Source: a virus. From it: a stretch of DNA of 64,000 nt. The stretch covers positions 1-64,000 of the IMG/VR virus record IMGVR_UViG_3300034073_004354, one strand, 5' to 3'. Positions within the stretch are counted from its first letter, which is position 1, and every line of letters starts with the position of its first letter. The notes beneath the pieces are model-generated. The model had not been told where the DNA came from and made no database searches. It saw only the letters and a program-made list of their open reading frames with translations. The position numbers were made by a program, and so were the translations under genes. Of this stretch, positions 22,524 through 45,600 are shown one piece after another.

Positions 22524-22538
22524 TATTATCCCCTGCAA

Positions 22539-23487: not shown

Positions 23488-23505
23488 AACTACCTCTAAA
23501 GAAAA

Positions 23506-23541: not shown

Positions 23542-23561
23542 TTATACCAATTTTTTTAAGA

Positions 23562-24029: not shown

Positions 24030-24037
24030 TTTATTTC

Positions 24038-25615: not shown

Positions 25616-25618
25616 TTT

Positions 25619-26128: not shown

Positions 26129-26179
26129 TATACGCCTCTACTTAAATTTTCAATGTTATTAATAGAAATTTGCCCCGTT

Positions 26180-27382: not shown

Positions 27383-27385
27383 TAA

Positions 27386-27760
27386 TTACTCCAATTCTTC
27401 TTGGTAAGTTTCTGTTTCTTCAAGATTAGATTCTTTTAGCTTATTAAGATCTTTCATAGCTGAAATAATAAACTTAGATACATTAAAATTGCAATCTTGA
27501 TCACAATTTAATCCAGAAAGTTTGTTTTCTTCCAGGCAGGTTTCTACCTTTTTATTACAAGTTGTACAATCAAACTGAAAAGGCTTTCTCTTATCTAGAC
27601 GAACAATATCGCCACGCTGTTTCATGCTTAATTTTACAAATTTTGATACTGGAACTATTTTTGAACAAAATTCACAAATTACTTCATCCAAATCGACATC
27701 TAATGAGGCATTTGTTGTAATTCTTTTTCCAGGACAACCAGGTAGACAATTAATAAGCAT
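27386..27760 (-). CDS. Zinc-finger protein between recombinase and primase, unknown
   Basis: About 124 residues. The ATG at 27760 is preferred, with GGGAG upstream. Cysteine pairs CLPGCPGK (about 5-10), CEFC (about 31-34) and CTTC (about 61-64), with later single cysteines (CLEE, CDQDC), suggest one or two zinc-binding sites. The C-terminus is helical and acidic. It lies in the replication block 3 nt upstream of the primase gene, so a role as a primase or helicase accessory is possible. No family was recognised. Confidence 0.45.
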   Translation of the reverse strand: MLINCLPGCPGKRITTNASLDVDLDEVICEFCSKIVPVSKFVKLSMKQRGDIVRLDKRKPFQFDCTTCNKKVETCLEENKLSGLNCDQDCNFNVSKFIISAMKDLNKLKESNLEETETYQEELE

Positions 27761-27784
27761 TATCACTCTCCCATATTAATAGAA

Positions 27785-28948: not shown

Positions 28949-28964
28949 ATATCAACTCCTTAAT

Positions 28965-30620: not shown

Positions 30621-30889
30621 TATATCTTCCTAAATATTTCTAGGTTAAAAAATATTACCTCTTGAAGAGGAATGGGTAATTTATCAATTAATTCTTCTAG
30701 TGATACATAATAATTGTTATTATAAATCCAATCACCAGAATAGTTGTTAAGAATTGTTCCTTCCGAAAAAGTTATCTTGGTATGAAACTTAAGATATACG
30801 CTTCCGGAAGTATTTGTAATAATCTTCTTTGGATAGTTTGGATAAGCCTGCGGAATTATTTCTATTTGAAATGTAATCGCTTCTTTCAA
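30620..30889 (-). CDS. Small protein upstream of groEL, unknown
   Basis: 89 residues, beta-rich (ITFQIEIIPQAYPNYPKKIITNTSGSVYLKF quoted in part). Its stop overlaps the groEL start and its start overlaps the ruvC stop by 4 bp, so ruvC, this gene and groEL are translationally coupled. The size and position recall GroES (about 97 residues), but no GroES mobile-loop or conserved Gly pattern can be seen, so that identity is not claimed. Confidence 0.45.
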   Translation of the reverse strand: MKEAITFQIEIIPQAYPNYPKKIITNTSGSVYLKFHTKITFSEGTILNNYSGDWIYNNNYYVSLEELIDKLPIPLQEVIFFNLEIFRKI

Positions 30890-31440
30890 GGTTTACTCAA
30901 TTTGCTATGCTCCAGATAATATCCCAGAGCCACGATTATAGAGTCTGCTTCGTCGTAGCACTCTTTTTTAATATTACCTGCACGATTATTCTGCGTCAAA
31001 AAATTATTAAACGTTTTCTTACAGAAGTTTAAAACATCTTCTTTATCATCAATATTGCAACTATATTTTGTTTTAACCAATTTTCTAAGTGAAGTCACTG
31101 GCATCCTAATTGGCTTAGACTTAAGAACACGGTATGTTGCCAGCCCGCAGACCTCATTGAAAGAAGATAATATTAAGATAGTATTTGCCGAGCTTTTACC
31201 TTTTGAAAATTTCTTCGCATAATCTTCGATGGCTACAACATCTGGTTTTTCTTTTTGAACTAAATTTGTTATAGCATCAAAAGCGTAATTTAGCCTAAAA
31301 GAAAAATTATCATCAGATTTTTTCTTTGAAGTAGGTTTGATGTGACCATAAGTTTTTAATCTAATATCCTGACCTACTTCCACTTCTAATATTGACCAAC
31401 CTATCGTAGCGGAAGATATATCTAAACCTAATATCAACAT
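30886..31440 (-). CDS. ruvC: RuvC-like Holliday junction resolvase
   Basis: 184 residues. RNase H-like acidic residues sit in the expected places: MLILGLDISSATIGW (first Asp, about 6), DVVAIEDYAKKF (Glu, about 71) and CYDEADSIIVALGY (paired acidic residues near the C-terminus). Basic residues follow the second motif. It resolves four-way junctions arising in recombination-linked replication and packaging. The start codon lies inside a perfect inverted repeat (31438-31462), and the ssDNA-binding gene's terminator is only about 32 nt upstream. Confidence 0.85.
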   Translation of the reverse strand: MLILGLDISSATIGWSILEVEVGQDIRLKTYGHIKPTSKKKSDDNFSFRLNYAFDAITNLVQKEKPDVVAIEDYAKKFSKGKSSANTILILSSFNEVCGLATYRVLKSKPIRMPVTSLRKLVKTKYSCNIDDKEDVLNFCKKTFNNFLTQNNRAGNIKKECYDEADSIIVALGYYLEHSKLSKP

Positions 31441-31462
31441 AAAGACTCCTAGAGTCTTTATG
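31438..31462 (-). promoter_or_regulatory. Inverted repeat covering ruvC ribosome-binding site and start codon
   Basis: On the transcript, CATAAAGACT and AGTCTTTATG form a perfect 10-bp stem with a 5-nt loop (CTAGG). The AGGAG ribosome-binding site spans loop and stem, and the AUG of ruvC closes the stem. This would sequester initiation when folded, suggesting control of translation by temperature, a protein or ribosome traffic. It may alternatively be an RNase III-type processing site. Confidence 0.6.
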
Positions 31463-31471
31463 TTACCAAAT

Positions 31472-31518
31472 AAAAAAACCTAATTCACACGTGCGTGTGC
31501 GTGCGCGTGTGAATTAGG
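31472..31518 (-). terminator. Strong terminator after the ssDNA-binding gene, GT/GC-alternating stem
   Basis: A perfect 13-bp stem (31479-31491 with 31506-31518; CCTAATTCACACG and its complement) with a 14-nt GT/GC loop is followed on the minus strand by TTTTTTTATTT. It is the best terminator in the window. Bases 31486-31511 form an unbroken alternating purine-pyrimidine tract of 26 bp, able to adopt Z-DNA. Confidence 0.9.
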
Positions 31519-31536
31519 CTTGGTTCAAATTAACTA

Positions 31537-32202
31537 TCAGCTCTCGAAATTGAAGAAATCATCATCATCATTGGATTGCTGCTTTGACTTAGCACCACCC
31601 TTAGAATCAGCCTTGGGCTTGGTGGACTCGCCTTCACCCCAACCCATGATTTCACGAACAGATTCTGGTGAAGTAGGTTGTGTTAGCTTTAGCATATCGA
31701 CACGATCATTAAACTTGTTAAAATCTTCACGGAAGGATGATTCCAGTGGTGATTTTGGTCGTGGAGTTACACGATAAAGTGGCTGTGTTCCAGGAGTTCC
31801 TCGTTCAATGGTAATATCGTAACCGGTTACTGGACCCCAATCTTCATCAAGATAAAGAGTCTTAATTCCGTTATAAATTTGGCTACCAATTTCAAGAAGT
31901 TTGAATTCGTTATTGGCACGATCCAAAACTTTGATCATCCAGCGTGGACGACGCTTAAAACCAGCATCCTCTAGTTTTCTAACTAACTTAGCATCACCAA
32001 TTGGTGAGTTTACCTTACGCTTTTTACCATCTGGTGTATCGAGCCAGTGAATATAGAATTGAACTGGATTACCCATAATACGAACACGAGACTTACCAAC
32101 ATCTAACTTCATAAAGTCATTCTTCATGCCAGAGGCTGCAGAACCTTCGCTAACATCACCTGAATTCCAATCAATTTCACCAAATACTACATCTGAACCC
32201 AT
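31537..32202 (-). CDS. Single-stranded DNA-binding protein (gp32-like)
   Basis: 221 residues. The N-terminal region (about 28-150) has an OB-fold-like pattern with LDVGKSRVRIMGNPVQFYIHWLD and WMIKVLDRANNEFKLLEIG, similar to gp32-type SSBs of T4-like phages. A Pro/Ser/Lys linker follows and the end is DDDDFFNFES, the acidic and aromatic tail used by SSBs to recruit partners. It is flanked by a strong terminator downstream. It would coat ssDNA for DnaE and RecA. A strong AAGGAGAG site precedes the start. Confidence 0.8.
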   Translation of the reverse strand: MGSDVVFGEIDWNSGDVSEGSAASGMKNDFMKLDVGKSRVRIMGNPVQFYIHWLDTPDGKKRKVNSPIGDAKLVRKLEDAGFKRRPRWMIKVLDRANNEFKLLEIGSQIYNGIKTLYLDEDWGPVTGYDITIERGTPGTQPLYRVTPRPKSPLESSFREDFNKFNDRVDMLKLTQPTSPESVREIMGWGEGESTKPKADSKGGAKSKQQSNDDDDFFNFES

Positions 32203-32284
32203 GTTTCTCTCCTTTGTTGTTGTTGTTTTGTGCTTGACTATTTAAGGCTTAATGCCATTGACGTCTTTGCTATTGTGTTATTGG

Positions 32285-32872
32285 CTATTCCTGCCATTTA
32301 ATTTCGCCACAAATGTCATCCTCGTCTCTTTCTTTTTCATCATCATAACCAGGAGGACCATAACCCGACTGGCGACGTGCCGAGCTAACCTCTTCTTTAT
32401 ACCCACCCGCCTGGAAATTTCCAAGCGTCTCTAGTGAGTAATCTCTCTTTAAGAAAGTCTTGAAGGCGTAATGCCATCCCAAAAAATAATCTGCTTTATT
32501 TTCTAACCATTTCTTTGCTGCCTTAGCAATAGCAACTTCATTACAAGCATCAATATAGTCATCATCAGCCTGAGCAAACCATTCTTTATTTTTCACTACC
32601 TTATGACCTGCCGAATTAGCCTTCACTAGTGCGGCATTAGTCCAAGCTTTAGATCTGGCACCCTCCTTTATAGAAATCAACCTATCAACTTTTGCAATCA
32701 ACTCTTGACAAATATTTTGCGCATGAAGCGTCATCACCAAGCCACGCTCTGCGATATTTAGATCCATCACACCGTTTCTTGGAAGCCAATCTGATACATT
32801 ATCAATTTCTGTTGTATCAATATCTTCGACGGAAAAATTATCAATCCTGATTTTTTCTCTAAAAGTACCCAT
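32285..32872 (-). CDS. Replication-block protein, unknown
   Basis: 195 residues. A predominantly helical core (about 40-150) contains an internal basic stretch (KANSAGHKVVKNKEWF) and several conserved-looking aromatic residues (FLGWHYAFKTFLKRDY). The C-terminus is polar and rich in Gly, Tyr, Asp and Glu (SGYGPPGYDDEKERDEDD). Its position upstream of the SSB gene, with an 82-nt gap, suggests an SSB or recombinase loader or mediator. No family was recognised. Confidence 0.45.
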   Translation of the reverse strand: MGTFREKIRIDNFSVEDIDTTEIDNVSDWLPRNGVMDLNIAERGLVMTLHAQNICQELIAKVDRLISIKEGARSKAWTNAALVKANSAGHKVVKNKEWFAQADDDYIDACNEVAIAKAAKKWLENKADYFLGWHYAFKTFLKRDYSLETLGNFQAGGYKEEVSSARRQSGYGPPGYDDEKERDEDDICGEIKWQE

Positions 32873-32880
32873 TTAAAACC

Positions 32881-33174
32881 TCACCTATCTTTCATTTCAA
32901 GTTTTGCAACCTTGGCTTCGAGCATGGCAATCTTTTCTACCCAGGAATCCAACTTTCGCAACTTTTGATTGTACATTAAGTTTAATAAAAAGAAGATTAA
33001 AATCATTGCAGTAGGTTGGTTAGCCGGTGGTGTAACAGAAATAATATCACCATCCTGATCTGTTACGAATAATCCAACAAACGCTTCCTTTCCAAAACTT
33101 TTCTCTAACTCTAGATAGTATTCAAATTCTTCTTTTGTAAGATTTAACTTTTGATTGGCAATTGCCTTAATCAT
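32881..33174 (-). CDS. Small protein with one hydrophobic segment, unknown
   Basis: 97 residues. After a charged N-terminus (about 1-40) and ISVTPPANQP, a hydrophobic stretch (TAMILIFFLLNLMY, about 55-70) may cross a membrane. The C-terminus is a short coiled coil (VEKIAMLEAKVAKLEMK). The start overlaps the preceding stop by one base. Membrane anchoring of a replication component is one possible reading. Confidence 0.4.
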   Translation of the reverse strand: MIKAIANQKLNLTKEEFEYYLELEKSFGKEAFVGLFVTDQDGDIISVTPPANQPTAMILIFFLLNLMYNQKLRKLDSWVEKIAMLEAKVAKLEMKDR

Positions 33175-33704
33175 CAGGTACTCCTATTGATACCCTTGAA
33201 CCCACCACGCTTAGAATGAATCGGTGCCTCTTTTCCAAGATTAGGGTTGGTTAAAACCCTCTGTTGATGTAACTTTCTTAGTCGCTCAGCCTTGTTAGAT
33301 AAATCTTCTGGTAGAACATTACCATCATCATCTAACTGATCTAAGTGTTCTGCGTATTCTTTTTCAATCTCACTACGAATATCATCCTCTTCAACATAGT
33401 CAGATTCTTCAGAAGTGGCAATCACCTGACGGGCTGGTTTAGCACTTAAAGAGATATCTTCTAAAATCTGCTTCCCGATCCCACCCTTTAATTCATTAAA
33501 GAAGAATAAAGAAATGTCATAAATCTGTGATTCGGTGAAAGAAGAAGAAAAACGTTCGGCACTAATTTTGTTCTGAATTAAAGTAATAATATTGGTGTCA
33601 CGATTTGAAAAAAGGCTAGAACCACAAGAAGGGCATAAATTCTTCATCAAGGCAAATCGCATTGATTCGTTAACGCCAAAACCACATTCATTACAGTGCA
33701 TCAT
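33174..33704 (-). CDS. Zinc-ribbon protein coupled to DnaE-C, unknown
   Basis: 176 residues. The N-terminus has CNECG (about 4-8) and CPSCG (about 26-30), a four-cysteine zinc ribbon like those of small nucleic-acid-binding or transcription proteins. The middle is helical and acidic. The C-terminus is basic (HSKRGGFKGINRST) and may bind nucleic acid. Its start overlaps the stop of DnaE-C by 4 bp (ATGA type). It may be a polymerase or primosome accessory. Confidence 0.5.
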   Translation of the reverse strand: MMHCNECGFGVNESMRFALMKNLCPSCGSSLFSNRDTNIITLIQNKISAERFSSSFTESQIYDISLFFFNELKGGIGKQILEDISLSAKPARQVIATSEESDYVEEDDIRSEIEKEYAEHLDQLDDDGNVLPEDLSNKAERLRKLHQQRVLTNPNLGKEAPIHSKRGGFKGINRST

Positions 33705-34735
33705 ACTTTTTTTCCTAAGGCACTTTCAAGTAGGGAAAGTGACAAACCCTTTTGTTCCATATATTCATCTACCTTACAAATAGCCCTGATTGGTAAGCCG
33801 TCAGTTAGAACCGTCATATATTTATCATAATCATCTTGCCAAACGGTTAATTCGGCGGTGGAACCTTCTGCATCCTCGACTAAATACTTGGCAAATTTTC
33901 TACCTATATTTTTACCACGTTTAATTTTAAATTCCTTAACCATAGCCTTGATAATTACTTCAATCTTAACCTTAGTTCCAGAAGGAATCTGGGGGATCTT
34001 TCTCAATGGCGTAACATTAGAATCCTGCCGAAAGAAACCTTTGAAAACCTCATGGAGAGAACCGCTGATTGTTCTGCCCAAAACCTCTCTCTCGTTGGTG
34101 AGCAGATCCTTGCGCTCCCATTCTTCATGGTACGTAGGGAATACAATGTCATCAATAGTTTTTCCTTTCTTTTTTTCTTTATTGATCAAATCACGATAAT
34201 GTGAGTGGTTTTCAAAAATATCCTTTCTGGTTCTTCCAAAAGAAGTAAAAGCACCAGCCTTAGACATTGACTCCATGACTCTTTTATTTACTACCCTTGC
34301 ATTTGTTCTAAAGAAAAAATCCTCAATCGAAGCAAAGGGTTGCAATGAGATGATTTCTTGAATTGCAGTATCGCCAACACCCTTAATCGCTGTTAAGCCT
34401 GTAACAATAGTTCCATCTTCCTTGGTAACATAACTGCCGGTGCTTTTGTTAACATCTGGTGGGGTAATGGAAATGCCCATCTTGGAGCATTCGGAAATAT
34501 ATTCTAAGGTTTTATCAGAGTTAGGATCCTCGCTGTTAAGCAATGCACACATAAATTGTGTAGGATAATGACATCTCAACCAAGCAGTATAATAAGAAAT
34601 ATGTGAATAAGAAACTGAGTGAGAATTAGAAGTAAGCATACCGTTAGATAAATAATATTGGTGATCAGGATGCTCTACTTCTAGATCATAAGTATCCATC
34701 ATCCCAACTTCTTTTACTGATTTAATTTTAGCCAA
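33701..34735 (-). CDS. dnaE-C: DNA polymerase III alpha, C-terminal half with C-intein
   Basis: 344 residues, starting with TTG at 34735 behind a strong AGGAGG site that overlaps the methyltransferase stop. Residues 1-37 are a C-intein; Ser38 starts the C-extein SHSVSYSHISYYTAWLRCHY, the conserved DnaE fingers sequence. A helix-hairpin-helix (AIKGVGDTAIQEI, about 118-130) and an OB domain (about 245-330, GTKVKIEVIIKAM... VDEYMEQKG) follow. The tau-binding C-terminal domain of bacterial DnaE is missing. The gene works only if joined to DnaE-N by trans-splicing. Palm and PHP domains are in the other half, 4.7 kb upstream in transcription order. Confidence 0.93.
   Translation of the reverse strand: MAKIKSVKEVGMMDTYDLEVEHPDHQYYLSNGMLTSNSHSVSYSHISYYTAWLRCHYPTQFMCALLNSEDPNSDKTLEYISECSKMGISITPPDVNKSTGSYVTKEDGTIVTGLTAIKGVGDTAIQEIISLQPFASIEDFFFRTNARVVNKRVMESMSKAGAFTSFGRTRKDIFENHSHYRDLINKEKKKGKTIDDIVFPTYHEEWERKDLLTNEREVLGRTISGSLHEVFKGFFRQDSNVTPLRKIPQIPSGTKVKIEVIIKAMVKEFKIKRGKNIGRKFAKYLVEDAEGSTAELTVWQDDYDKYMTVLTDGLPIRAICKVDEYMEQKGLSLSLLESALGKKV
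34625..34735 (-). other. C-intein of the split DnaE intein
   Basis: 37 residues: block F TYDLEVEHPDHQYYLSNG and block G GMLTSN, then Ser+1. The terminal Asn is present; the usual penultimate His is replaced by Ser. Together with the 102-residue N-intein it makes a mini-intein of about 139 residues, without endonuclease. Confidence 0.92.
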
Positions 34736-34743
34736 AAAACCTC

Positions 34744-35550
34744 CTAGTTTGGTTCTGGTGTCCCATTTATTTCTAGATTCAGAAATTCATCCATCTCTTC
34801 TGAACTAGTACTGGGTCCAAAAATTCTTTCGTTAGCTATTTTAATATACTTCTCTTCTTGTTCAATTAAGATAAAATCTCTATCTAAATTCTTGCAGGCT
34901 ACACCCGTCGTTCCACTTCCCGCGCAATTATCTAAAACTATTTCCCCAGGGTTGGTATAAGTCTTTATTAAATATTCAAATAAAGAAACCGGCTTCACCG
35001 TAGGATGAGAACCGCTAGTATCGGTATTAAATTTCTGCCAAGAAGACGGGACCCTTAATTCTGGAACTTCGACAATACCACGGCCTTTGAATTTTCTATA
35101 GTTTTCAGACCTGGTGTTATGATCTTTACGATATCGCTTTGTATGCTTCTTACCAGTGGCAGATGTTCTTTCCTGCATCTGCTTGTTATAAGTCCATTTT
35201 CCTCTTGAAAAAATTAGAACCTGCTCATGCTCTTTGAAAGGTTCTCTGACTGTATTTGCAAAATTACTTCCACGATTTTTAATCCAAATCCATTCGTGAC
35301 GAAACATCTTTGGGTTAGACATAACTAAAGCACTAGAAAAAGGTTGGGAAGCAGTCAGGGCTATAACTGCATTAGGTTTTGTAATTCTTTTATATTGTTC
35401 CCAAAGTTTATCAAAAGGGATTACTGTATCCCATTTGTTTTGGGTAATTCCATAAGGTAAATCACAAAGAATCATATCTATGGAACCATCATCTATCTTC
35501 TTCATTACTTCTAAGCAATCACCCTGATATATCTTGTTTTTTTCTAGCAT
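34744..35550 (-). CDS. DNA adenine/cytosine-N4 methyltransferase
   Basis: 268 residues. Catalytic motif IV is MILCDLPYGITQNKWD (DLPY in place of DPPY, about 31-46). TRD-like basic sequence (about 130-165) comes between it and the SAM-binding motif LDNCAGSGTTGVACKNLDRDF (about 213). Motif IV before motif I is the order of beta-group methyltransferases. A DPPY-type catalytic loop means an amino-methyltransferase (m6A or m4C). It lies within the dnaE gap, directly upstream of DnaE-C. No restriction enzyme was seen beside it, so protection of phage DNA against the host, or an orphan regulatory role, is likely. Confidence 0.87.
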   Translation of the reverse strand: MLEKNKIYQGDCLEVMKKIDDGSIDMILCDLPYGITQNKWDTVIPFDKLWEQYKRITKPNAVIALTASQPFSSALVMSNPKMFRHEWIWIKNRGSNFANTVREPFKEHEQVLIFSRGKWTYNKQMQERTSATGKKHTKRYRKDHNTRSENYRKFKGRGIVEVPELRVPSSWQKFNTDTSGSHPTVKPVSLFEYLIKTYTNPGEIVLDNCAGSGTTGVACKNLDRDFILIEQEEKYIKIANERIFGPSTSSEEMDEFLNLEINGTPEPN

Positions 35551-35669
35551 TTCAAAATCCCGTAGGTTAGGTATAGCTAGTATACCTAGAGCAATCCTAA
35601 TATTACTCTATTTTTAGAACCAAGTTTGGAAAACTTAAACCAACTTCATTTATACTCAAAAATATATTT
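35551..35669. other. Non-coding spacer with palindromes
   Basis: This 119-bp spacer separates the methyltransferase and TadG-like genes. It holds an AGGTATA/TATACCT inverted repeat (about 35569-35587) and a second perfect palindrome AAGTTT-gga-AAACTT (about 35622-35636). No T-run follows either in the minus direction, so these look like protein-binding or processing sites rather than terminators. The word GTATACCTAGA recurs at 36927-36937 on the other side of the TadG-like gene. Confidence 0.4.
35580..35590. repeat. Direct repeat GTATACCTAGA, copy 1
   Basis: An identical 11-mer occurs at 36927-36937, so the pair brackets the TadG-like gene almost exactly. In copy 2 the minus-strand TCTAGGTATAC also serves as ribosome-binding region of that gene. 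It may be a target duplication, a recombination remnant or coincidence. Confidence 0.4.
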
Positions 35670-36923
35670 TTATTGAACTATTCTTAGCTTAGTTGTGCTG
35701 ACGTTAGTTATTTCACAATCTTGTTCTTCATCACCACGAGGTACCTGGCTTGATAATCCAGAAGCTAAAGTAATGTTGTGATTGCCATTAGCGTTAATAA
35801 CATCAGCAACTATAGAACCATAAAAAGAAGCATTGCCATTTGGGTAGACTGTTGATTCTGGTGCATAAATGGTTCCATTAAAAGTGCTAGAGCCATTTAT
35901 TCTAACTACTCTTTCACCAATAACCCTTATCTCAAAACACTCCGGATGATCTGCATTGCCAGTAACACCACCATTTAAATTTACATTACCATTAACATAT
36001 AAAATGGTTGGACTAGTACATCCATCAGATGTGCCAGAAATATTAATCATTTCTCTTGCCGTTCTTTGCTCCAAATCACCATCAACATAATAAACTTCAC
36101 CTTCTTGAAGTGTAGTGACTATAGTTGTATTAGAACCCCTACCCACACGAACACCATTAGGTAGGGCATGATAACTTTCAGGATAATCCACTGGACTGAT
36201 TGGAATTTCCATACCCATAGGTGTAGAGTCGCCTGTGAAGTTATAAGCAGAACCCCTAGAGTCTATGCAAGGGGTTCCTACATCATATTCACAATCTGGA
36301 CCCATATGAATATCTATTCCGTTTTGTACATTAAGACTACCGCCCAAAGTTATCCCACCGGAGTTAGTACAAGCAGATGCGCCGGCAGTTACCTCATCTA
36401 TTCTTAGATCAAAATTTCCACTTAGTTCCAATTGAGAATTGGCAAAGATTAAGCAGGGCCAATCACCATCGTTAGTAGGGACACACTCTTCTTCTAAGGT
36501 AGCAACCTTACCAGCAATAGAAGTTGCATGAACATGGTAAGTATAGTATCCAAACATTCCACCAAATATAGATGGAATATTGGATTCTGTAGTTATTTTT
36601 ACATAATCACCATTATCCATATCTAAGATCCACTCACCACCTTGATTAAAGGTACCAATTTCAGTGGTAACATTTTCAGAGGTTATAGTGGCTCCATAGA
36701 CGGTATGGCTTGTAGCAATAGAGGTTGCTTCTTCAGATACAGTAGTAGTGTTATTACTACCATCATCTTCACTGCCAAGATAGGCGGCGGAAGAAATTGC
36801 GGAAGTATCTGCGGCAGTTTGCAACTGCGCCTTAGAATAAGTCATAAGACCATAATCTATGGAAAGCGCTGCAAATCCAATAAATATGGGAAGTGAAATA
36901 CTAAAATAAGTAGCAGTAGACAT
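35670..36923 (-). CDS. TadG/Flp-pilus-like protein with N-terminal membrane helix
   Basis: 417 residues. The N-terminus (STATYFSISLPIFIGFAALS, then IDYGLMTYSKAQLQTAADTSAISSAAYL) matches the start of TadE/TadG-type pseudopilins: one hydrophobic helix followed by a helix with the AxxxQxxADxxALAxA pattern. A beta-rich extracellular part with paired cysteines follows (about 130-300). The C-terminus has NGSSTFNGTIYAPESTVYPNGN, a beta-solenoid or polymer-forming repeat. In bacteria such proteins assemble Tad pili or the outer surface. In a phage genome this is unexpected and looks host-derived. It lies inside the dnaE gap and has a TATAAATA box just upstream. Confidence 0.7.
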   Translation of the reverse strand: MSTATYFSISLPIFIGFAALSIDYGLMTYSKAQLQTAADTSAISSAAYLGSEDDGSNNTTTVSEEATSIATSHTVYGATITSENVTTEIGTFNQGGEWILDMDNGDYVKITTESNIPSIFGGMFGYYTYHVHATSIAGKVATLEEECVPTNDGDWPCLIFANSQLELSGNFDLRIDEVTAGASACTNSGGITLGGSLNVQNGIDIHMGPDCEYDVGTPCIDSRGSAYNFTGDSTPMGMEIPISPVDYPESYHALPNGVRVGRGSNTTIVTTLQEGEVYYVDGDLEQRTAREMINISGTSDGCTSPTILYVNGNVNLNGGVTGNADHPECFEIRVIGERVVRINGSSTFNGTIYAPESTVYPNGNASFYGSIVADVINANGNHNITLASGLSSQVPRGDEEQDCEITNVSTTKLRIVQ

Positions 36924-36926
36924 TTT

Positions 36927-36937
36927 GTATACCTAGA
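36927..36937. repeat. Direct repeat GTATACCTAGA, copy 2
   Basis: This is the second copy of the 11-mer at 35580-35590, located 4 nt upstream of the TadG-like start codon. On the minus strand it reads TCTAGGTATAC, giving a weak ribosome-binding site (AGG). Confidence 0.4.
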
Positions 36938-36943
36938 ATTTGT

Positions 36944-36951
36944 TATTTATA
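36944..36951 (-). promoter_or_regulatory. Candidate T4-type late promoter box TATAAATA
   Basis: The octamer TATAAATA lies 21-28 nt upstream of the TadG-like start codon, in the short AT-rich spacer after the tnpB gene. With the window's sigma-like factor it fits a T4-style late promoter. An AT-rich background makes chance matches possible. Confidence 0.45.
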
Positions 36952-36981
36952 GTTACAATAAATATTGAAAAATATTCTTTT

Positions 36982-38196
36982 TCAAGATTTAATCTCTGTT
37001 TTCTGGGCAACAGGGACTATACACTCCTGTTCTAAAGGTAACCAATAAAATCCTGTTCTATTAATCCCCTTTAATCGTTGTTCCCTGCTAATTGCAGGCA
37101 ACTGAAGGGCAATATTCTGGGATGCATTTAAATCCGAGTTTCCTGTGTATCCACAGGATCTGCATTTAAATAACAATCCTTTCCTATTCCCCTTACGAAC
37201 CCAACCGCACTGGAAACACCTTTGACTTGTGTAAGTAGGGCTAACCTTAATAATCTGGACACCAGCATCTTTAAGTTTAGAATCCAACTTTTCAAATAGT
37301 TCCCTGTAATTCCAATGAGAAAGGTTGCGGCTTGACTTTCTTCCCTTTCTCATATTTCTAATGTTCTCCCTTCTAACTACCTTTATATTCTGTATATTCA
37401 GTCTGTTTACAGACCAATTTATGTAGTTAGTACGGTGTGCTTCTGCTCTCCTAAATCCCTTGGAACCCTTTTTCTTCCTTGCTAATTTTTGACAAATAGC
37501 TTTGTAATTGTGACCATGGTTATCCTTGTCAACTACTTGACCATTTGAACAAGACAAAATAGAATTTTGCCCTATATCTATCCCTAGGGTTTCCCCAGAT
37601 TCCCTTTCTCTAGGTTCCTCCAATTCAAAACCAAACGTTATGGAATCTTTTGATAACCTAACTCCTGCTTTTAGTGTTCCTGAGGCTAACATTTTATTGA
37701 AGTGCTTTGTTTTCTTAAAAGGTATCTTTATAGTTAGCTTATTACCAAGAGAAGATAGGGTTACCCAACCATCGAAGATGGTATCATTATCCAAGTCTAT
37801 TTTAACAAACCTAGAATCTAACTCTGGTTTAATATCTCCAACTAAAGGCTTTGAAGCAATATTTTTGTTATAGATTTGCTGAATTTTTCTGGCTTTCTTA
37901 AACATACCTTGAGCATTGAACTTATTTATTTGCCAAAGCCTTCGGCTTTGTTTAGCTTTAGTTCCACGGACAATAGCAGAAGCCTGTTTACCAGCAGCTT
38001 GCAATGCTCTTGCAGATAACCAAGTTTGAATCTGGGAAGTTATTCTCTTATCAAGCAGGGCAGGAATTTTATCCATATCCCAAAGGGGATCTATGAAAAG
38101 GGTAGTAACCCTCTGGTATTCTGCAATAAAAAGGGAAAGGTTTTCCATTTTAACCTTTCTGCAGAATTTGGTAGTTACTTTAGTTGACTTTACCAT
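36982..38196 (-). CDS. tnpB: TnpB-family RNA-guided nuclease (IS200/IS605 or IS1341 type)
   Basis: 404 residues, normal length for TnpB. The N-terminal wedge/REC-like part is basic and helical. The RuvC-like core has LGIDIGQNSILSCSNG (first Asp, about 206), VVRRENIRNMRK (Glu, about 274) and SDLNASQNIALQ (third acidic, about 353). A zinc finger CFQCG/CRSCG (about 327-350) lies between the last two. The catalytic DED set therefore looks intact. No tnpA transposase was found nearby. TnpB uses an RNA from its own 3' end to cut DNA. Placed within the dnaE gap, it could act as the homing-type nuclease of this fractured locus. Confidence 0.92.
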   Translation of the reverse strand: MVKSTKVTTKFCRKVKMENLSLFIAEYQRVTTLFIDPLWDMDKIPALLDKRITSQIQTWLSARALQAAGKQASAIVRGTKAKQSRRLWQINKFNAQGMFKKARKIQQIYNKNIASKPLVGDIKPELDSRFVKIDLDNDTIFDGWVTLSSLGNKLTIKIPFKKTKHFNKMLASGTLKAGVRLSKDSITFGFELEEPRERESGETLGIDIGQNSILSCSNGQVVDKDNHGHNYKAICQKLARKKKGSKGFRRAEAHRTNYINWSVNRLNIQNIKVVRRENIRNMRKGRKSSRNLSHWNYRELFEKLDSKLKDAGVQIIKVSPTYTSQRCFQCGWVRKGNRKGLLFKCRSCGYTGNSDLNASQNIALQLPAISREQRLKGINRTGFYWLPLEQECIVPVAQKTEIKS

Positions 38197-38255
38197 GATT
38201 TATATAGAAATATTACTATAATTTTAAATTTATTTTAATAAATAATATAAAGGAA

Positions 38256-38714
38256 TCAAATACATTCTTCAGAGCAGAAGTTACCCTCTTCACCACATAC
38301 TATAAAAGTATTAGGAATTACACCTTTACATTTATAAGTCTTCATTTTTTTAGTCCATTCCTCTTTGGTTTGGCATTCTTCTAAGGAAATTAATAAAGCC
38401 TCCACTTCGTTGGTTTCTTTTAAAATAAAAGTCATCCAGCCTTGGAAGTTACCAACCCGCCAAACATTTGCACCGAAATGGTAAGCATACAAATCTTCTT
38501 TTTGAAAGTGTTCCCTATTTAATTTTATTAAGCCACCTAATGTAGCATGGTCACTGAAGTCTGGAATGGCACCATCCGGTGGCAACAAGCCTTCATCATT
38601 AATCCTACCACAAATATTTATATCAAGTGGAAAAAACCAACGCATACCTGGCAACCACTTCCAATTCTTACAGATTAAAGTTTTGAGTCCTAAATCTATT
38701 TTGTCTTGCAGCAT
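38256..38714 (-). CDS. Unknown protein in the dnaE gap
   Basis: 152 residues with many Trp, Phe, Gly and Cys (WKWLPGMRWFFPLDI, YHFGANVWRVGNFQGWMTF). It ends in a cysteine pair (FIVCGEEGNFCSEECI), perhaps a metal site. The first 110 residues look like a compact globular domain of mixed strands. No family was recognised. It is the first gene upstream of tnpB, with a 59-bp AT-rich spacer between them. Confidence 0.45.
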   Translation of the reverse strand: MLQDKIDLGLKTLICKNWKWLPGMRWFFPLDINICGRINDEGLLPPDGAIPDFSDHATLGGLIKLNREHFQKEDLYAYHFGANVWRVGNFQGWMTFILKETNEVEALLISLEECQTKEEWTKKMKTYKCKGVIPNTFIVCGEEGNFCSEECI

Positions 38715-38740
38715 GTTATTTATCTTTTGTCCAAATTATT

Positions 38741-39061
38741 TTAGTTACTATCTAATGCTGCTCTAACTGCTGCATCTTTAGATTCTAGCAATTTTCTAAG
38801 TGCAACTTCTGTTTCAGGGCTATAAGGCGCTCGTCTAGCAACTTGTTCGGCCAACTCAGCAAATGGTCTTGAAACCTCTTGTAACTTTGGTGGTAAATGA
38901 TCAAATTTGAAATATTTTAAAGTTGGTGATAATTGGTATTGACTATAAACAACCAAATCATTTAAAGTCGGTACTGGCATAGAAACCATAACCTCACCAG
39001 AACGAACCTTGGCACATCCATTTGCCATACAATCTGGATTTGCACAACAGCATGTAATCAT
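38741..39061 (-). CDS. Small cysteine-cluster protein in the dnaE gap, unknown
   Basis: 106 residues. The N-terminus has six cysteines in 17 residues (MITCCCANPDCMANGC), suited to a metal-bound knot. The rest is helical with a Pro/Leu/Tyr stretch, and the C-terminus is rich in Ala, Glu and Lys. No family was recognised. It is preceded by a good ribosome-binding site (GGAGGAG). Confidence 0.45.
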   Translation of the reverse strand: MITCCCANPDCMANGCAKVRSGEVMVSMPVPTLNDLVVYSQYQLSPTLKYFKFDHLPPKLQEVSRPFAELAEQVARRAPYSPETEVALRKLLESKDAAVRAALDSN

Positions 39062-39106
39062 ATAAACTCCTCCCTTTAAATTGTTTTACAAATTAAACTA
39101 AGATTT

Positions 39107-39403
39107 TCATCCATAATGTTCGCTATTTTTAATTGCTGTAATTATATCTTCATAAGCAGCAGCGCACAGCGGAATGTCAGCAGATTCCATTCTTTTGTTG
39201 AGAAATTCTAAGATTAATTTTCTCTCTCGCATTTCTCCCAAAACCTCACTGGCTTCTGGTGGTGGCCAAGACGATCTTGCTTCATAATCCTGAATTATAT
39301 TATCTGCTTTGCTTACTAGTTGCCAGACCCATTCTGCTGCAAACTCTTTATCCTCCAGCCTAAGAAAAAACTCCTCAATAAAATCATCTTTTGTGTACAG
39401 CAT
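39107..39403 (-). CDS. Small helical protein directly after DnaE-N, unknown
   Basis: About 98 residues. The ATG at 39403 has GAGGG 5 nt upstream, so it is preferred over a TTG at 39424 that would overlap DnaE-N. The protein is acidic and helical (DFIEEFFLRLEDKEFAAEWVW), with a short Pro-rich turn (SSWPPPEASE). It is the first gene downstream of DnaE-N. No motif was recognised. Confidence 0.5.
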   Translation of the reverse strand: MLYTKDDFIEEFFLRLEDKEFAAEWVWQLVSKADNIIQDYEARSSWPPPEASEVLGEMRERKLILEFLNKRMESADIPLCAAAYEDIITAIKNSEHYG

Positions 39404-39410
39404 AACACCC

Positions 39411-39719
39411 TCACTTATTAACAACTATTTCTAATTTATCTTCTAAAATTTTCCAGAGCGGCAACATTTCGCCTGTATTAGTTCTAAATTTATGATTGAT
39501 TGTACAAACTGTTTTTGAGCCATCGTCTAATTCTACTTCAAATACTTTTAATTTTCCGTGATAATGATTATCCTTGACAGGGATCATAATATCTTGTCCC
39601 GTTTCTTCATTTCTGCTACGAACCCAACAGCCTGGTTCAACATTTCTGATTGGAATATCTTTCCACTCTCTAGCATCAGAATCTCTGTATACCCGGATTA
39701 ATTCATCAAACTTCAAGGA
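39411..39719 (-). other. N-intein of the split DnaE intein
   Basis: 102 residues from Ser783 to the stop codon (at 39411-39413). Block A is SLKFDELI, with Ser in place of Cys as the first nucleophile. Block B is KTVCTINHKF, with the TxxH motif. Splicing to the partner at 34625-34735 restores YGFNR-SHSVSYSH. No endonuclease domain is present. Confidence 0.92.
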
Positions 39720-42065
39720 GCGATTAAAGCCATATAATCCGAATGGTTCGATTTGCTCATCCCAAATTCTTTTGGCTTCTTCATATTTCATACCAGATAC
39801 TTTCATGCAGTCAGCAATAAAGTTAGCCTCTGTTTTTAAAACTAGATCTGGATCTTTACCTTTTAATTTTGTAATTTTCCTTAGTGCATCTGCTTGGTTA
39901 AGATCCCAACCTGCACAATCCTTGGCAATGGTCATCATGCCTTCTTCATAAAGAGAAACACCATAAGTCTTCTTTAATGAATTTTCCATTTTAGGATGGA
40001 TGTATTCGATTTCTTCTACTCCAAGTTTTCTGTTGATATAATCGTTCCTCTGTTCTGGTGAACAAGAAGGTCTGCCTAGTGCATTAATGTCAGAAATTTC
40101 TTCAATATTTTTTGGCTTAATCTTCATACAAAGTGGGGTAAGTGATGACTCCAATTGAAAGACGCCGGCAGTTTCACCACGTCCAATCATTTTAAAAGTT
40201 TCTGTATCACCTAAGGGAATATCTTCAATAGTTATTTTTTTACTTTTGGTTTCTTGAATTATATTAAAGGTATCAGTAATTACGTTTAATGTATTTAGAC
40301 CAAGAAGATCCATTTTAACTAGACCGAAATCTTCGCACCTAGTTTTCTCCCATTGGGTAACCACCAAGCCGGTTTCTGCATCAATTCTAAGGGGGACAAT
40401 CTCGTATAGTGGACGATCACTAATTACAACCCCAGCGGCATGAACACTCCAATTCCTTGTCAGTCCTTGAAGCTTGCAGGCATTTTCATATAGTTCTGGA
40501 TATTTCTTCATATATGAAGCAAACTCTTTACTTTCTTTCATTGCCTGTTCTACTGTCTCTGTATCTGGCATGATAGAAGTTAAATGATTTGCAATTTTAA
40601 AGGCTTCTGATTTATCACCACCTAGCTCTAGACTTCTAGCTACGTCTTTAATAATCACCTTTGGTGACAGTGTAGACCAATTGCTGATGGAAGCGACTTT
40701 ATCTTCCCCATATTTTTCTTTCAGATATTCTTTCACCTTGGCCGGGTCTGCGAAGTCTGAGTCAATATCTGGAAAGCTTTTCTTTTCTTTATTCTGAAAT
40801 CTTTCAAACAGGAGGTCGTACTTAATGGGGTCAACTGTAGTGATGCCAGTTAAAAATGCAACAATAGAGCCGGCACAACTTCCTCTTGCAGGCGAGCAAG
40901 GCATTCCTTGTGACTTAGCCCAATTTACGAAGTCTGCCACAATAAGCATATAAGAAGAAAAGTTTTTCTCTTCCATTACACTTAATTCTTTTTTAACCCT
41001 ATCCCAGTATTCTTTCTTCTGTTCATCTTCTAGATGGCCTAATTTTTCTTTAAATCCGGCCATACATTTATATCTCAAATAGGACTTATCTTCTTCTATA
41101 TCAGGACAAACCTTGGAAGACCAACCCTTAAATTTTTGATATTCGTTTTCTTTTTGAACTGGAAACTTAGGAAGAATCGCACCCTTTGGTTCAATATAGG
41201 TAGGATTATCACAGGCGTTTAAAATCTTGATAGAATTCTCCATGCCTTTCTTGGCAACATCTGGACCAAAGAAGGATGTAATTTCTTCATATGTTTTAAG
41301 GTACATATCTTGCACGCCATAACGAAATCTATCAGGATCGTTGATTGGCTTTTTGTCTTTAATAGCTAACATAAAATCGTGATACTTGGCATGGTCTTTA
41401 TCTCGATAGTGGGCATCACAAGTAATAACATAGGGGATGCTCTTATCATGCGATAGTCGAATCATTGCTTCATTTAGCTTTCTCTGGCTAACTTCCTTGC
41501 CAGTTTTGCCTGTAGCCTGGAGGTCATGTGGCTGGATTTCAAGAAAGAATCTATCTTTAAAAATAGCATTAAATCGATCAAGATAACAAAGAGCTTCTTG
41601 CTCATTTCCTTCTGTAATTAAAGTTTTGGCAATCAAACCATTAGAACAAGCGGTAAGGGCAATAACACCCTGGTTGAACTGCTCGATATGTTCCCAAGAA
41701 ATTCTGGGCGTTTGTTTACCCATATACCCAGAGACTTGGTTGCGGTAAGCCTCATAATTTAGTCGTAGAATATTTCGATAACCTACTTCATTTTGTGCAA
41801 GTAGAACAAGGTGATAATTCTTCTTATCAGATAGATCTGGTGCGAAGTACGCCTCCATACCTGGAATTAACTTAACGCCATGCTTCTTACTTGCTTTCCA
41901 AGCATCAAAAATAGCTGTCATAGTACCATGATCTGTGACTGCTACGCCTGGATGATCTACTTCTTTAGCGCGAATAAAAAGGTCTTCCACATCATTCATA
42001 CCATCCAAAGGTGAACCCAATTCAGTATGGTTGTGCAAAGACACAAATGGTCCTGAAATACCCAT
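39411..42065 (-). CDS. dnaE-N: DNA polymerase III alpha, N-terminal half with N-intein
   Basis: 884 residues. The PHP domain opens with SLHNHTELGSPLDGM (metal-binding His residues), then VTDHGTM and GMEAYF. The palm has ARGSCAGSIVAFLTGIT and FPDIDSDF (about 428-435, catalytic Asp pair). GLTRNWSVHAAGVVISD and GRGETAGVFQLES are typical alpha-subunit motifs. The extein ends YGFNR at residue 782, after which a 102-residue N-intein runs to the stop. No proofreading exonuclease is fused. The start has a strong GGAGG site. With DnaE-C the spliced enzyme would be about 1089 residues, close to bacterial DnaE. Confidence 0.94.
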   Translation of the reverse strand: MGISGPFVSLHNHTELGSPLDGMNDVEDLFIRAKEVDHPGVAVTDHGTMTAIFDAWKASKKHGVKLIPGMEAYFAPDLSDKKNYHLVLLAQNEVGYRNILRLNYEAYRNQVSGYMGKQTPRISWEHIEQFNQGVIALTACSNGLIAKTLITEGNEQEALCYLDRFNAIFKDRFFLEIQPHDLQATGKTGKEVSQRKLNEAMIRLSHDKSIPYVITCDAHYRDKDHAKYHDFMLAIKDKKPINDPDRFRYGVQDMYLKTYEEITSFFGPDVAKKGMENSIKILNACDNPTYIEPKGAILPKFPVQKENEYQKFKGWSSKVCPDIEEDKSYLRYKCMAGFKEKLGHLEDEQKKEYWDRVKKELSVMEEKNFSSYMLIVADFVNWAKSQGMPCSPARGSCAGSIVAFLTGITTVDPIKYDLLFERFQNKEKKSFPDIDSDFADPAKVKEYLKEKYGEDKVASISNWSTLSPKVIIKDVARSLELGGDKSEAFKIANHLTSIMPDTETVEQAMKESKEFASYMKKYPELYENACKLQGLTRNWSVHAAGVVISDRPLYEIVPLRIDAETGLVVTQWEKTRCEDFGLVKMDLLGLNTLNVITDTFNIIQETKSKKITIEDIPLGDTETFKMIGRGETAGVFQLESSLTPLCMKIKPKNIEEISDINALGRPSCSPEQRNDYINRKLGVEEIEYIHPKMENSLKKTYGVSLYEEGMMTIAKDCAGWDLNQADALRKITKLKGKDPDLVLKTEANFIADCMKVSGMKYEEAKRIWDEQIEPFGLYGFNRSLKFDELIRVYRDSDAREWKDIPIRNVEPGCWVRSRNEETGQDIMIPVKDNHYHGKLKVFEVELDDGSKTVCTINHKFRTNTGEMLPLWKILEDKLEIVVNK

Positions 42066-42123: not shown

Positions 42124-42150
42124 ATGGGCCGCCTTATTTTGGCGGCCCAT
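42124..42150 (-). terminator. Strong terminator between the coiled-coil gene and dnaE-N
   Basis: Perfect 10-bp stem ATGGGCCGCC/GGCGGCCCAT with a 7-nt loop and AT-rich flanks. It terminates the upstream unit ending at 42163. The 58 bp to the dnaE-N start (42066-42123) must then hold the replicase promoter. They contain a repeated AGAATATT but no clear -35/-10 pair. Confidence 0.85.
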
Positions 42151-42601: not shown

Positions 42602-45600
42602 TTACAGAAAATTGGGGTTGATCCTCACATCTTCGAGTCCGGGCAGCCCCAACGATATTATCATACAAAGTAGCTCTTTCTTCCTCAAATTTACTTTATT
42701 AAAATCTTCGCTGTAGCCTAAGAAGTCATTTGCTTCATTTTCATTATCTTCATCGTCTAGGGTAGCAATTATATAATCAATATATGCTCTTAAGTTTTTT
42801 CCCATAGTAGTGTAAAAGGTACCTACCGTTTTTAAAAGACTACCCGGTTTGGTGGGTGAGGTACTTCTTCCAGCATTAGCAAAGTCATTTATATTAGCAA
42901 TACGACCCCCTGAACCGGCTGGATTAACATATCTTATCACTGTGCCGGCATCATTATCATCATTTTGGATAATATCAAAATATTTTCCTGGTGATCTAAA
43001 CCATTTTTTAAGTCTATCACTTACAGAGCTCAACTCTGGCGGGGTTCTTTCTGCAAAGATTGAATTTACTGTATTTTGTATATAAAACTTTCCTTCTGGA
43101 ACACCACCCTCTGCTTCGGAACGTGGAACCATTTTTTCAAACAGATCTTCAACTGTTAATCCGGTACTGGATCTTTTTTCTTTTACACTTGGAATCTCGC
43201 TAAAAATACCAGCAAGTTCATCTAGTCCAAATACAGAAACAATAAATCTTAGCAATCTTTGTTTTTCATCATCATCTAGTTCTGCTCCACGAATAATTGG
43301 ATTTTTGATTATCTTATAACAAGTAATCGGATCCTCTAGTGTAACTCTTACATGTGGATATTTTATTTTGGGATCTTCTTTCTTAAAGAAAGATTCGCCA
43401 CTAATGATGCTGGCAGGCATATTTTTGATAAAACTTACTGTTTTATCAAGCTCACTTTTAATTTCTTTATATAAATCAGTCTCTGCTGCTTTCTTATCCC
43501 TTTGAAGCATCTCCTCTAATTGTTCAGAATGCTCTATAATTAGATCTTCTAGGTCGGCAACAGAATAAGAATATAGGCTTTGCTCACCTGAACTTCTACC
43601 TATTCTGATCAAAATAGAAATATCCAGTGGTTTATCTTCAAAATTCACTACAATACGCCTGCCTGTTAGAATGACACCCTTGGAATCGCCAAGATTAGTC
43701 TCTTTCTTTTGTACATCTAAGGGTATATTAAAACCTACCCAATTCCAAGTTGTTTCACTGCGAGTAGGTGGCCAAGCAATTTGTGTTGATGCCCTAGGTG
43801 TTCTTGTACCAATTTGATGTCGGCTGGTATTTAGCCCAGTCATTGGGGAATCTGGTGATTCCTTATTAGTATAAAAGTTTAGTTTTTTAAACTTATACTT
43901 CAGGCCTTCGGCTGTAAAGTTATCATTAATAAATTTTAAATAGTTCAAGTCCTCGGAGTTAGTGTCAAGTTGATTGTACAGACCAATAAAATTATCTATT
44001 TTAGTTTTAAATATACTATCTATAAGTCCCTTTAATTTTGTAGAAAGATCATCAAGTATAATATCATGATAACGTTTTATTTCAGCATTATCGCTAGTAT
44101 TCATATAATTTATTAATTCTGAAAATGATTCTTCCCCACCTTTTTCAAATAATTCAAACACTTTCTCTTTAAATGCTTCTGTAAAAATAATATTCTCATC
44201 AGCAAGTAATTTTTTAATAGCAAAATCAAGCAAATTATTATCTTCATCCTCTTCCAAACCCAGGGCCAATATTAGCTTTTTTTGATGTGATGGATTTTGA
44301 GAGATTGCCATTAAACATTCAAAAATATTATTTTTATGTGCTGCTACATCTTTTTCTTCACTAGAATCATCAAGCTTCATATAATGTTCTATTAGCTTTG
44401 ACCATCCTACCGAGGTAACGCCAAGCTCATTGTTTAGATGATAGTCAATAGCGCTTCTGCGATCCTCAAATATTTGATATTTTCCTTCTGAGCCGTAAAC
44501 AGTAAAGCGCTCCTCTTGCTTTAGATAATCCAATATACTTGACGGATTTTCTCTGTCTACAAAAGGAATCCAATCCCAACCAAAGACTGTTTCGCTATAT
44601 TCGCCTGGAATAAAATTCAACGTTGTAACTGGCATTATGCTATTAACGGTATTTAAGGCGGTTGATACCAGTGCGCTTTGTGGAGCCTCAGAATTCATCG
44701 CCCTTAATCTTCCCAAAATATATTCTTTTGCAGCAAGCAAATTATCAGTATCAAATATCTCTGTATTGATAACATCCACTATGTTGTTAGTCGTTTCAGT
44801 AGGAGGTGATATTGATTTGCTTAGCTCAAAATAAGCCATATCTAGGTTAGTGCAATATTTTCTATATTTATTGGTTAATTTTCTTAATTTAGAATTATCT
44901 TTTTTCTTTTCATTAATAAGCTCATTATGTTGATTTCTCAATTCATTAATAGCAAGCTCTAGCTCTCCCTTAATATTCTCGAGCGATTCCTTAACAAGAG
45001 TCTCTATTTCTTGTGATGTTTTATCACCACTTAAAACAGTTAAAATATCATTAACATAATCATCTGGAATACTTATTCCACAATAATAATTCGACTCCTC
45101 ATCGTATCCAAAATACTTAGAGATAATTTCATTTAGTTTCTTAATTATATTTATGACATAGACAACAGAAAGTATGGCATTGTTTTGTCTAGCAGTCTTA
45201 ATCGCAGGCAATGCCTTGGCTTTATCATGTGTACCTTGTAAGAATTTTGTGAATTTATTCTTATCTAAATTTAAAGTTGTCAATAACAAGGAGGTTGCTT
45301 CTTGTAACACATTAGAAGACTCTATTTCTTGTATACTTATCTGTTCTAAAAAGGTAACCCAAGACCTATTTGGGTCACCCTCATCATTGGTAACAGAGTC
45401 AATATTTTGTATGACCTCATTGACTGCAATAATTGCTTTTTTAATTGCAGTAGTCAAAATTAACTTTGACATAGATTCATCAAAGGTAAAGCTACTGATA
45501 TCAAAAATATTTTGCTTTATCCAGATTCCAATCTCACCAGTTATTTTTTCAATCTCTTCTATAATTTTATTACCAAAGAATTGATTGTAAAAATCAACCT

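What the first reader, a model, noticed from the sequence alone, without database searches (positions are those of the whole stretch)
33701..42065. Fractured DNA polymerase III alpha joined by a split intein, with a 4.7 kb cargo between the halves
DnaE-N ends in a complete N-intein (block A SLKFDELI, block B TxxH motif). DnaE-C opens with a complete C-intein (blocks F and G, terminal Asn, +1 Ser). Joining the exteins restores YGFNR-SHSVSYSH, a conserved DnaE motif, and gives a polymerase of about 1089 residues. The halves lie in the same orientation, N first, separated by six genes. This is the fractured-gene pattern known from environmental phage data, here in the replicase itself, so phage replication would depend on trans-splicing.
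Basis: partly seen in the sequence, partly recalled or inferred. Interest (0 to 1): 0.93.

Follow-up and report, generated by a model that had tools for sequence, protein, structure and literature searches.

The report
Phage replicase gene split by intein
A large bacterial virus encodes its DNA-copying enzyme as two separate proteins that very probably stitch themselves together by protein splicing; dozens of related virus contigs show the same split, and in this one the gap between the halves has filled with six unrelated genes.

Summary
Window 39411-42065(-) encodes DnaE-N (782 residues) fused to a 102-residue N-intein; 33701-34735(-) encodes a 37-residue C-intein fused to DnaE-C (307 residues). 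Joined, they give an uninterrupted 1089-residue Pol III alpha. The halves lie 4.7 kb and six genes apart. The intein of a relative that keeps it in one piece models as the cyanobacterial Npu DnaE intein (TM 0.87). Close relatives carry the same dnaE without intein, junction intact. Of 45 contigs (window included) with both halves in the stretch held, 43 are split at this site and 2 keep the intein whole. Of the 43, 31 have one nuclease-sized ORF between the halves (mostly one Vsr-like family), 10 a short gap, and 2 (window and sister) several cargo genes and no such nuclease; one further contig has 12 kb between the halves, nuclease included. So this is a derived fractured gene: homing endonuclease lost, splicing parts kept under purifying selection, cargo moved in. 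The phage also carries a split IMP dehydrogenase. Splicing and dependence on it are inferred, not assayed. Fractured genes are known; I found no paper on this DnaE group, but the founding paper could not be read.

The parts
39720..42065 (-). DnaE N-extein, 782 aa: PHP, palm with motifs PDIDSD (Asp 433) and MDLLGL (Asp 586), thumb, most of the fingers
   Evidence: Pfam; PHROG; positions; the catalytic role of these Asp is recalled
39414..39719 (-). N-intein, 102 aa, Ser1, block B TINH at 73-76; stop codon 39411-39413
39107..39403 (-). cargo gene 1 (98 aa, unknown), 86% to an L011 gene
   Evidence: start set by comparison with L011 11668-11964
38741..39061 (-). cargo gene 2 (106 aa, phrog_1761-like, unknown), 84% to an L011 gene
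38256..38714 (-). cargo gene 3 (152 aa, unknown), 54% to an L011 gene
36982..38196 (-). cargo gene 4: TnpB, 404 aa; Glu and third Asp of the nuclease site aligned, first Asp read by eye; nearest viral relatives (59%) sit directly behind an IS607 transposase gene, which is missing here
35670..36923 (-). cargo gene 5: Tad/DUF7305 protein (417 aa), 55% to an L011 gene
34744..35550 (-). cargo gene 6: N6/N4 DNA methyltransferase (268 aa), no match in L011
34740..34745 (-). AGGAGG, likely ribosome-binding site of DnaE-C
   Evidence: read
34625..34735 (-). C-intein, 37 aa, TTG start, ends LTSN
33704..34624 (-). DnaE C-extein, 307 aa, starts SHSVSYSH (+1 Ser): HhH, OB; stop codon 33701-33703

Best explanation
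The two genes encode the halves of one phage DNA polymerase III alpha. The N-intein and C-intein associate, fold into a Hint domain and, by Ser1 / Asn / +1 Ser chemistry, cut themselves out and join GFNR to SHSV, giving a 1089-residue replicase. Evolutionarily it is a derived fractured gene: a split intein with a free-standing Vsr-like homing endonuclease spreads into intein-free dnaE alleles at the site FNK^SH; in the lineage of the window and its sister L011 the endonuclease has been lost. Splicing is now needed for a full-length polymerase and is kept by purifying selection, while the gap, where insertions cost the polymerase nothing, has collected cargo (unknown genes, a Tad-type protein, an orphan IS607-type TnpB, a DNA methyltransferase). 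Shown: anatomy, homology, site identity, intein-free and unsplit relatives, nuclease in most relatives, truncated and missing nucleases, selection. Inferred: splicing activity, homing activity, essentiality, order of cargo gain.
For: Extein continuity. Intein residues in seven split loci. Solved-structure search with the N-intein profile: DnaE inteins first (7qil 1.8e-13, Nostoc 2keq 1.3e-12), gp41-1 4.9e-7; C-half profile 4lx3_B 0.0051. Model of the unsplit relative L059 (pLDDT 84.7, pTM 0.47): intein part matches Npu DnaE 4kl5_A, TM 0.87 to target, rmsd 2.0; extein part matches Pol III alpha. Close intein-free relatives with precise empty site (L014 against L012, 488 of 600 nt identical across the joined flanks). 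45 contigs with both halves: 43 split, 2 unsplit; between the halves 31 nuclease-sized ORF, 10 short gap or truncated ORF, 2 cargo. Nuclease model best matched by Vsr 1cw0 (E 1.1e-3, probability 1.00, TM 0.55 to target). Extein tree: window and L045 (the L011 contig) form one cargo clade, 99/97; states need 17 changes against 30.3 in shuffles, as low in 0 of 200. Intein dN/dS about 0.12 between window and L011.
Against: No splicing or homing was assayed. The intein lacks the penultimate His of typical block G (LTSN), in the window and the other six loci. intein_Nterm is sub-threshold for the window's N-intein. Synonymous sites are saturated, so dN/dS is rough. The nuclease's Vsr match is modest (no hit at E 0.001 or below). 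On the intein tree the states are not clearly clustered (11 changes, shuffled mean 12.3, as low in 29 of 200). Contigs are metagenomic and several are near-copies. Nuclease-sized ORFs were counted by length; L050's does not belong to the family.
Confidence: 0.88

Rival explanations
1. The halves are a decaying pair or work as an unspliced two-subunit polymerase; the intein parts are relics.
For: No splicing data. The Asp motifs taken as catalytic lie in the N half (roles recalled), so an unspliced N half might keep some activity.
Against: Intein dN/dS about 0.12 against L011 although synonymous sites are saturated. Ser1 or Cys1, TxxH, terminal Asn and +1 Ser are kept in all seven aligned split loci. 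Two relatives keep the intein unsplit inside dnaE, where it must splice or disrupt the protein (L059, L085).
Confidence: 0.05
2. Assembly artefact: the interval between the halves is chimeric and the true gene is contiguous.
For: Metagenome-derived record; the second near-identical record may come from the same sample.
Against: The second record agrees over 21 kb. The relative L011 from another metagenome (DnaE-N 90% identical) has the same split with partly the same genes between (86%, 84%, 54%, 55%). Each half ends at an intein boundary.
Confidence: 0.02
3. The unit is still mobile: the orphan TnpB in the gap acts as an RNA-guided homing nuclease and the methyltransferase guards the occupied site, so intein plus cargo spread together.
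For: TnpB sits in the gap where relatives carry a nuclease; nuclease-site residues look conserved (and by eye); a methyltransferase lies nearby in the same gap.
Against: Sister L011 has the split but no match to TnpB or the methyltransferase. The longest exact match between the TnpB 3' region and six intein-free dnaE junctions is 11 nt. The nearest TnpB relatives sit in an IS607 element elsewhere in other viral contigs, so a transposon remnant is simpler. No convincing Rfam RNA in the interval.
Confidence: 0.05

Closest known systems
Fractured genes (Dassa et al. 2009; paper not held, known here from recall, citations, and the PMC7891396 passage on AceL NrdHF)
   Same: DNA-synthesis enzyme gene broken by a split intein in a phage; most relatives have a free-standing nuclease-sized gene between the halves, best matched to Vsr
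   Different: In the window that gene is absent and six other genes (4.7 kb) fill the gap; the target is DnaE, at one site shared by dozens of contigs
Cyanobacterial split DnaE intein (Ssp, Npu)
   Same: Same protein, nearly the same split point (102/37), among the nearest solved inteins by sequence and the best intein match by fold
   Different: Inserted four residues downstream (FNR^SHS against Y^CFNKSHS; the longer cyanobacterial site is recalled, AEY and CFN seen in PMC8484483 passages); Ser1/+1 Ser instead of Cys; halves 4.7 kb apart in a phage
Split inteins in phage PolB (Pseudomonas phage MIJ3, PMC6892783; Aes123 and CP21, PMC12707363; passages read)
   Same: Phage replicative polymerase with a split intein; those newly described in PMC12707363 also use Ser1 and +1 Ser; MIJ3 has an HNH gene between
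   Different: Family B polymerase, other insertion site; no multi-gene cargo in the passages read
Inteins in bacterial DnaE, e.g. Desulfonema (PMC6390638, passages read)
   Same: Inteins in DnaE outside cyanobacteria
   Different: In that paper a 415-residue intein inside one half, not a split intein between two halves
IMPDH-1-type split intein (name recalled)
   Same: Second split gene of this same phage, IMP dehydrogenase, with a separate ORF between the halves
   Different: Different gene; a nuclease-like ORF (by eye) still lies in the gap

Membership tests
Split intein | N- and C-intein on separate genes, each fused to half of one protein | tested here: met
Split intein | Nucleophile at position 1, block B TxxH, terminal Asn, +1 Cys/Ser/Thr | tested here: met
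   Ser1, TINH 73-76, Asn37, +1 Ser
Split intein | Penultimate His in block G (usual, not universal) | tested here: not met
   LTSN in the window and the other six loci
Split intein | Hint fold | tested here: met
   on the unsplit relative L059 only: Npu DnaE TM 0.87; the window's halves were not modelled jointly
Split intein | Trans-splicing activity | not testable with these tools
   needs expression
Fractured gene with homing endonuclease | Free-standing homing endonuclease gene between the halves | tested here: not met
   a profile of the between-ORF family finds no member in the window or L011; TnpB is present but of transposon type
Fractured gene with homing endonuclease | DNA-synthesis or repair enzyme in a phage | tested here: met
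   DnaE; virus record; portal and large terminase in the window
Cyanobacterial DnaE split-intein allele | Insertion site Y^CFN with +1 Cys | tested here: not met
   site FNR^SHS, +1 Ser
Bacterial Pol III alpha (DnaE) | PHP, palm, fingers, HhH, OB over the joined exteins | tested here: met
   the OB match (PF01336) is below Pfam's cut-off
IS607 element | IS607 transposase (serine recombinase) next to TnpB | tested here: not met
   present in L116 (NF033518, 168 bits); none among the gap genes

The most novel reading that the evidence does not exclude
The gap of a split-intein gene is a cargo bay: once an essential replicase is split, foreign genes can settle between its halves without harming it, are anchored by the essential flanks, and may travel with the intein. 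In this phage an orphan RNA-guided TnpB may have taken over the lost homing nuclease's role. The 12-kb case (L176, nuclease still present) would be a second, apparently separate bay; it was not placed on the tree.
Probability: 0.1. Interest if true: 0.85.

Novelty: new variant of a known kind. Interest (0 to 1): 0.62.

Why it matters
It ties the best-known split intein, cyanobacterial DnaE, to a large phage population that splits the same polymerase four residues away at nearly the same intein position. The question where split DnaE genes come from becomes testable with real intermediates: intein-free, unsplit, split with nuclease, split with truncated nuclease, split with short gap, split with cargo. 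It also offers many natural Ser1/+1 Ser split inteins as candidate tools, and replicases apparently built from four or five chains.

Tried and rejected
Tried without result: Rfam on the interval (three matches far below gathering score, taken as chance); tRNA scan (none in the window); repeats in 32.5-43 kb (I saw no clear transposon ends around TnpB among the families listed, which were capped); promoter and terminator scan (promoters fewer than in shuffles; the one strong hairpin lies upstream of dnaE-N at 42124-42150); a TnpB guide against the empty dnaE site (at most 11 nt); a co-conversion tract around the junction (synonymous sites near saturation across gap and flanks). Alignment A5 misaligned N- and C-intein pieces and was replaced by A6. 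A scan with DnaE-C alone found two loci. Rossellomorea phage phiT1 has dnaE annotated in two pieces with no intein at this site and was set aside.

Counts are contigs, not phages. L044 (twin of the window) was left out and the trees; L068 and L069 (near-copies of L066), L053 and L113 (partial) were left out of the trees. L071, L080 and L089 had no N half in the stretch held; L071's was found 12 kb away; none was found in the records of L080 and L089. L134, L151, L152, L154, L157, L163, L164 and L165 came later and are not in the 45. L090-L112 (23 weaker matches) were not classified.

Literature: 10 searches in an open-licence library; passages of 13 papers seen, none read whole. None of the listings or passages I saw reports a phage DnaE split intein. 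Dassa 2009 is not held; its abstract, as I recall it, speaks of eight enzyme types, so DnaE may already be among them.
Full report
Observation. The window lies in a virus record of 147,740 bases. On the minus strand, 39411-42065 encodes 884 residues: DnaE residues 1-782, then a 102-residue N-intein; 33701-34735 encodes 344 residues: a 37-residue C-intein, then 307 residues of DnaE. The exteins meet at positions 794 and 793 of phrog_405 and 750 and 749 of TIGR00594, so nothing is missing; joined length 1089 residues. The C half starts at TTG 34735 behind AGGAGG. Between the halves are six same-strand genes: three of unknown function, TnpB, a Tad/DUF7305 protein, and an N6/N4 methyltransferase. 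A second record repeats the arrangement with one mismatch in 21,032 bases.

Is it an intein? Ser1, TINH, terminal Asn and +1 Ser are present; the penultimate His is not. A profile of seven related N-inteins finds DnaE inteins first among solved chains (7qil 1.8e-13, Nostoc 2keq 1.3e-12; gp41-1 4.9e-7), and the C-half profile finds the 36-37-residue C-inteins 4lx3_B and 4qfq_B (E 0.0051 and 0.015). The two window halves could not be folded as one unchanged sequence, so I folded the relative L059, which keeps the intein in one piece (mean pLDDT 84.7, pTM 0.47): its intein part matches Npu DnaE 4kl5_A (TM 0.87 to target, rmsd 2.0) and its exteins match Pol III alpha.

Relatives. A scan with DnaE-N gave 33 loci: 7 split at this site (L011, L012, L013, L016, L030, L033, L038; L016 is the second copy of the window's phage) and 26 without intein at this site, 23 of them close with the junction FNK^(S or A)HS and 3 distant. 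L014 is intein-free and close to split L012: across 600 nt of joined flanks 488 are identical, and the intein sits exactly between the FNK and SHS codons. A scan with the C-intein junction gave 69 viral loci, 46 of them at this site (the other 23 were not classified), and 2 contigs binned as bacterial genomes. I examined 48 contigs (window, L045-L089, L113, L114): 45 had both halves in the stretch held; 43 are split, 2 (L059, L085) contiguous.

What lies between. Of the 43 split contigs, 31 have one ORF of at least 300 aa, 10 a short gap or a truncated ORF, and 2 (window and L045, the L011 contig) several other genes. I aligned the ORFs of 29 of the 31 (all but the near-copies L068 and L069) and the truncated one of L046: zinc-finger-like Cys/His positions at the start and an E-x-D-G-x-x-H-F motif near the end. 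L050's is not of this family: a profile built without it does not find it. 17 of the 30 match ROS_MUCR and 4 of 30 DUF559. The model of one (pLDDT 85.7, pTM 0.50) is matched best by the Vsr endonuclease (1cw0, E 1.1e-3, probability 1.00, TM 0.55 to target), a modest match. The profile finds no member in the window or L011. L165, found later, has a LAGLIDADG gene instead. L046 has the nuclease truncated, and its relatives L047 and L048 have gaps of 113 and 63 nt while L081 keeps it, which looks like repeated loss.

Mobility and selection. On the extein tree (67 rows) the five states need 17 changes against 30.3 in shuffles (as low in 0 of 200); window and L045 form one clade, 99/97; the short-gap state is not clustered (7 changes, as low in 137 of 500 shuffles). 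On the intein tree (42 rows) the states are not clearly clustered (as low in 29 of 200). Intein and extein distances correlate (r 0.56, 0 of 2000 permutations as high), so much is vertical, but L047's intein groups with L049/L059 (98/97) while its extein groups with L081 (100/95), which suggests transfer. Between window and L011 the intein has dN/dS about 0.12 and the N-extein 0.03; for C-intein and C-extein alone dS could not be computed. Synonymous sites are near saturation in shared cargo genes and flanks too (pS 0.54-0.85), so split plus shared cargo is old and no co-conversion tract can be seen.

Cargo. Shared with L011: ORF98 (86%), ORF106 (84%), ORF152 (54%), Tad (55%); only in the window: TnpB and methyltransferase; only in L011: TadE-like and FeoA genes and a 174-aa gene with weaker relatives elsewhere. 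TnpB's nearest viral relatives (59%) lie directly behind an IS607 transposase (NF033518, 168 bits); here that gene is missing. I found no sign that TnpB targets dnaE. A further case is L071, read as L176: N and C halves 12.1 kb apart, with a nuclease of the family (E 1.8e-80) plus AAA and metallopeptidase/VWA genes between.

Same phage, other inteins. IMP dehydrogenase is split too: N half, a 364-aa ORF that looks nuclease-like by eye (no Pfam match), C half, at G000 70574-73191. The large terminase (window 15094-17949) and an AAA ATPase (G000 124623-128171) carry contiguous LAGLIDADG inteins. No family A or B polymerase was found in this record or its twin.

Known and new. Split inteins in phage PolB, a phage-like fractured nrdHF, and inteins in bacterial DnaE are in print (PMC6892783, PMC12707363, PMC7891396, PMC6390638; passages read). 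Ten searches showed no phage DnaE split intein, but the founding fractured-gene paper was not readable. I file this as a new variant: same mechanism, without the defining endonuclease, with cargo, in a DnaE group whose nearest solved inteins are DnaE ones. A phage origin of cyanobacterial split DnaE is open: closeness in sequence, fold and split point speaks for it; the four-residue shift of the site and Cys against Ser speak against a simple allele; I built no tree with cyanobacterial sequences.

Noticed in passing
L075 348-8131; L087 40-8092; L067 411-8077: dnaE broken into several pieces by successive split inteins: four in L087 and L067, five visible in L075. DnaE and intein matches support most ends; the ends of L075's first piece and the N end of some others are by eye.
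   Followed up: partly
L033/L051: dnaE in three pieces: a second split intein at PARG^C with another nuclease-like ORF between; L034 (L035 and L036 alike) carries a contiguous intein at that same second site.
   Followed up: partly
L176 (G008 22500-40500): Halves of dnaE 12.1 kb apart with nuclease, AAA and metallopeptidase/VWA genes between.
   Followed up: partly
L006 6574-9191 (G000 70574-73191): Split IMP dehydrogenase with a separate ORF between the halves, in the same phage.
   Followed up: yes
window 15094-17949; L009 5123-8671: Large terminase and an AAA ATPase with contiguous LAGLIDADG inteins.
   Followed up: partly
L003 6045-10966: DnaE split at a different site near the PHP domain, with an ORF between the halves that weakly matches Vsr (E 0.0057, below cut-off).
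   Followed up: partly
L163, L164, L165: The same FN^SH site split in a more distant DnaE group, with Vsr-like or LAGLIDADG ORFs between.
   Followed up: partly
L113 and L114: Same split dnaE on contigs binned as Thioploca and Paracaedibacteraceae MAGs; phage or cellular not decided.
   Followed up: no
window 42602-50629: 2675-aa ORF of unknown function upstream of dnaE; matches in 29 held loci, overlapping loci of one contig counted apart.
   Followed up: no
window record and IMGVR_UViG_3300035670_011573: Constant offset of 79,313 between the two records suggests a genome of about 227 kb (from coordinates).
   Followed up: no
L025 3558: An intein-free relative with Ala at the +1 position (FNK-AHS), which would not support normal splicing.
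   Followed up: no
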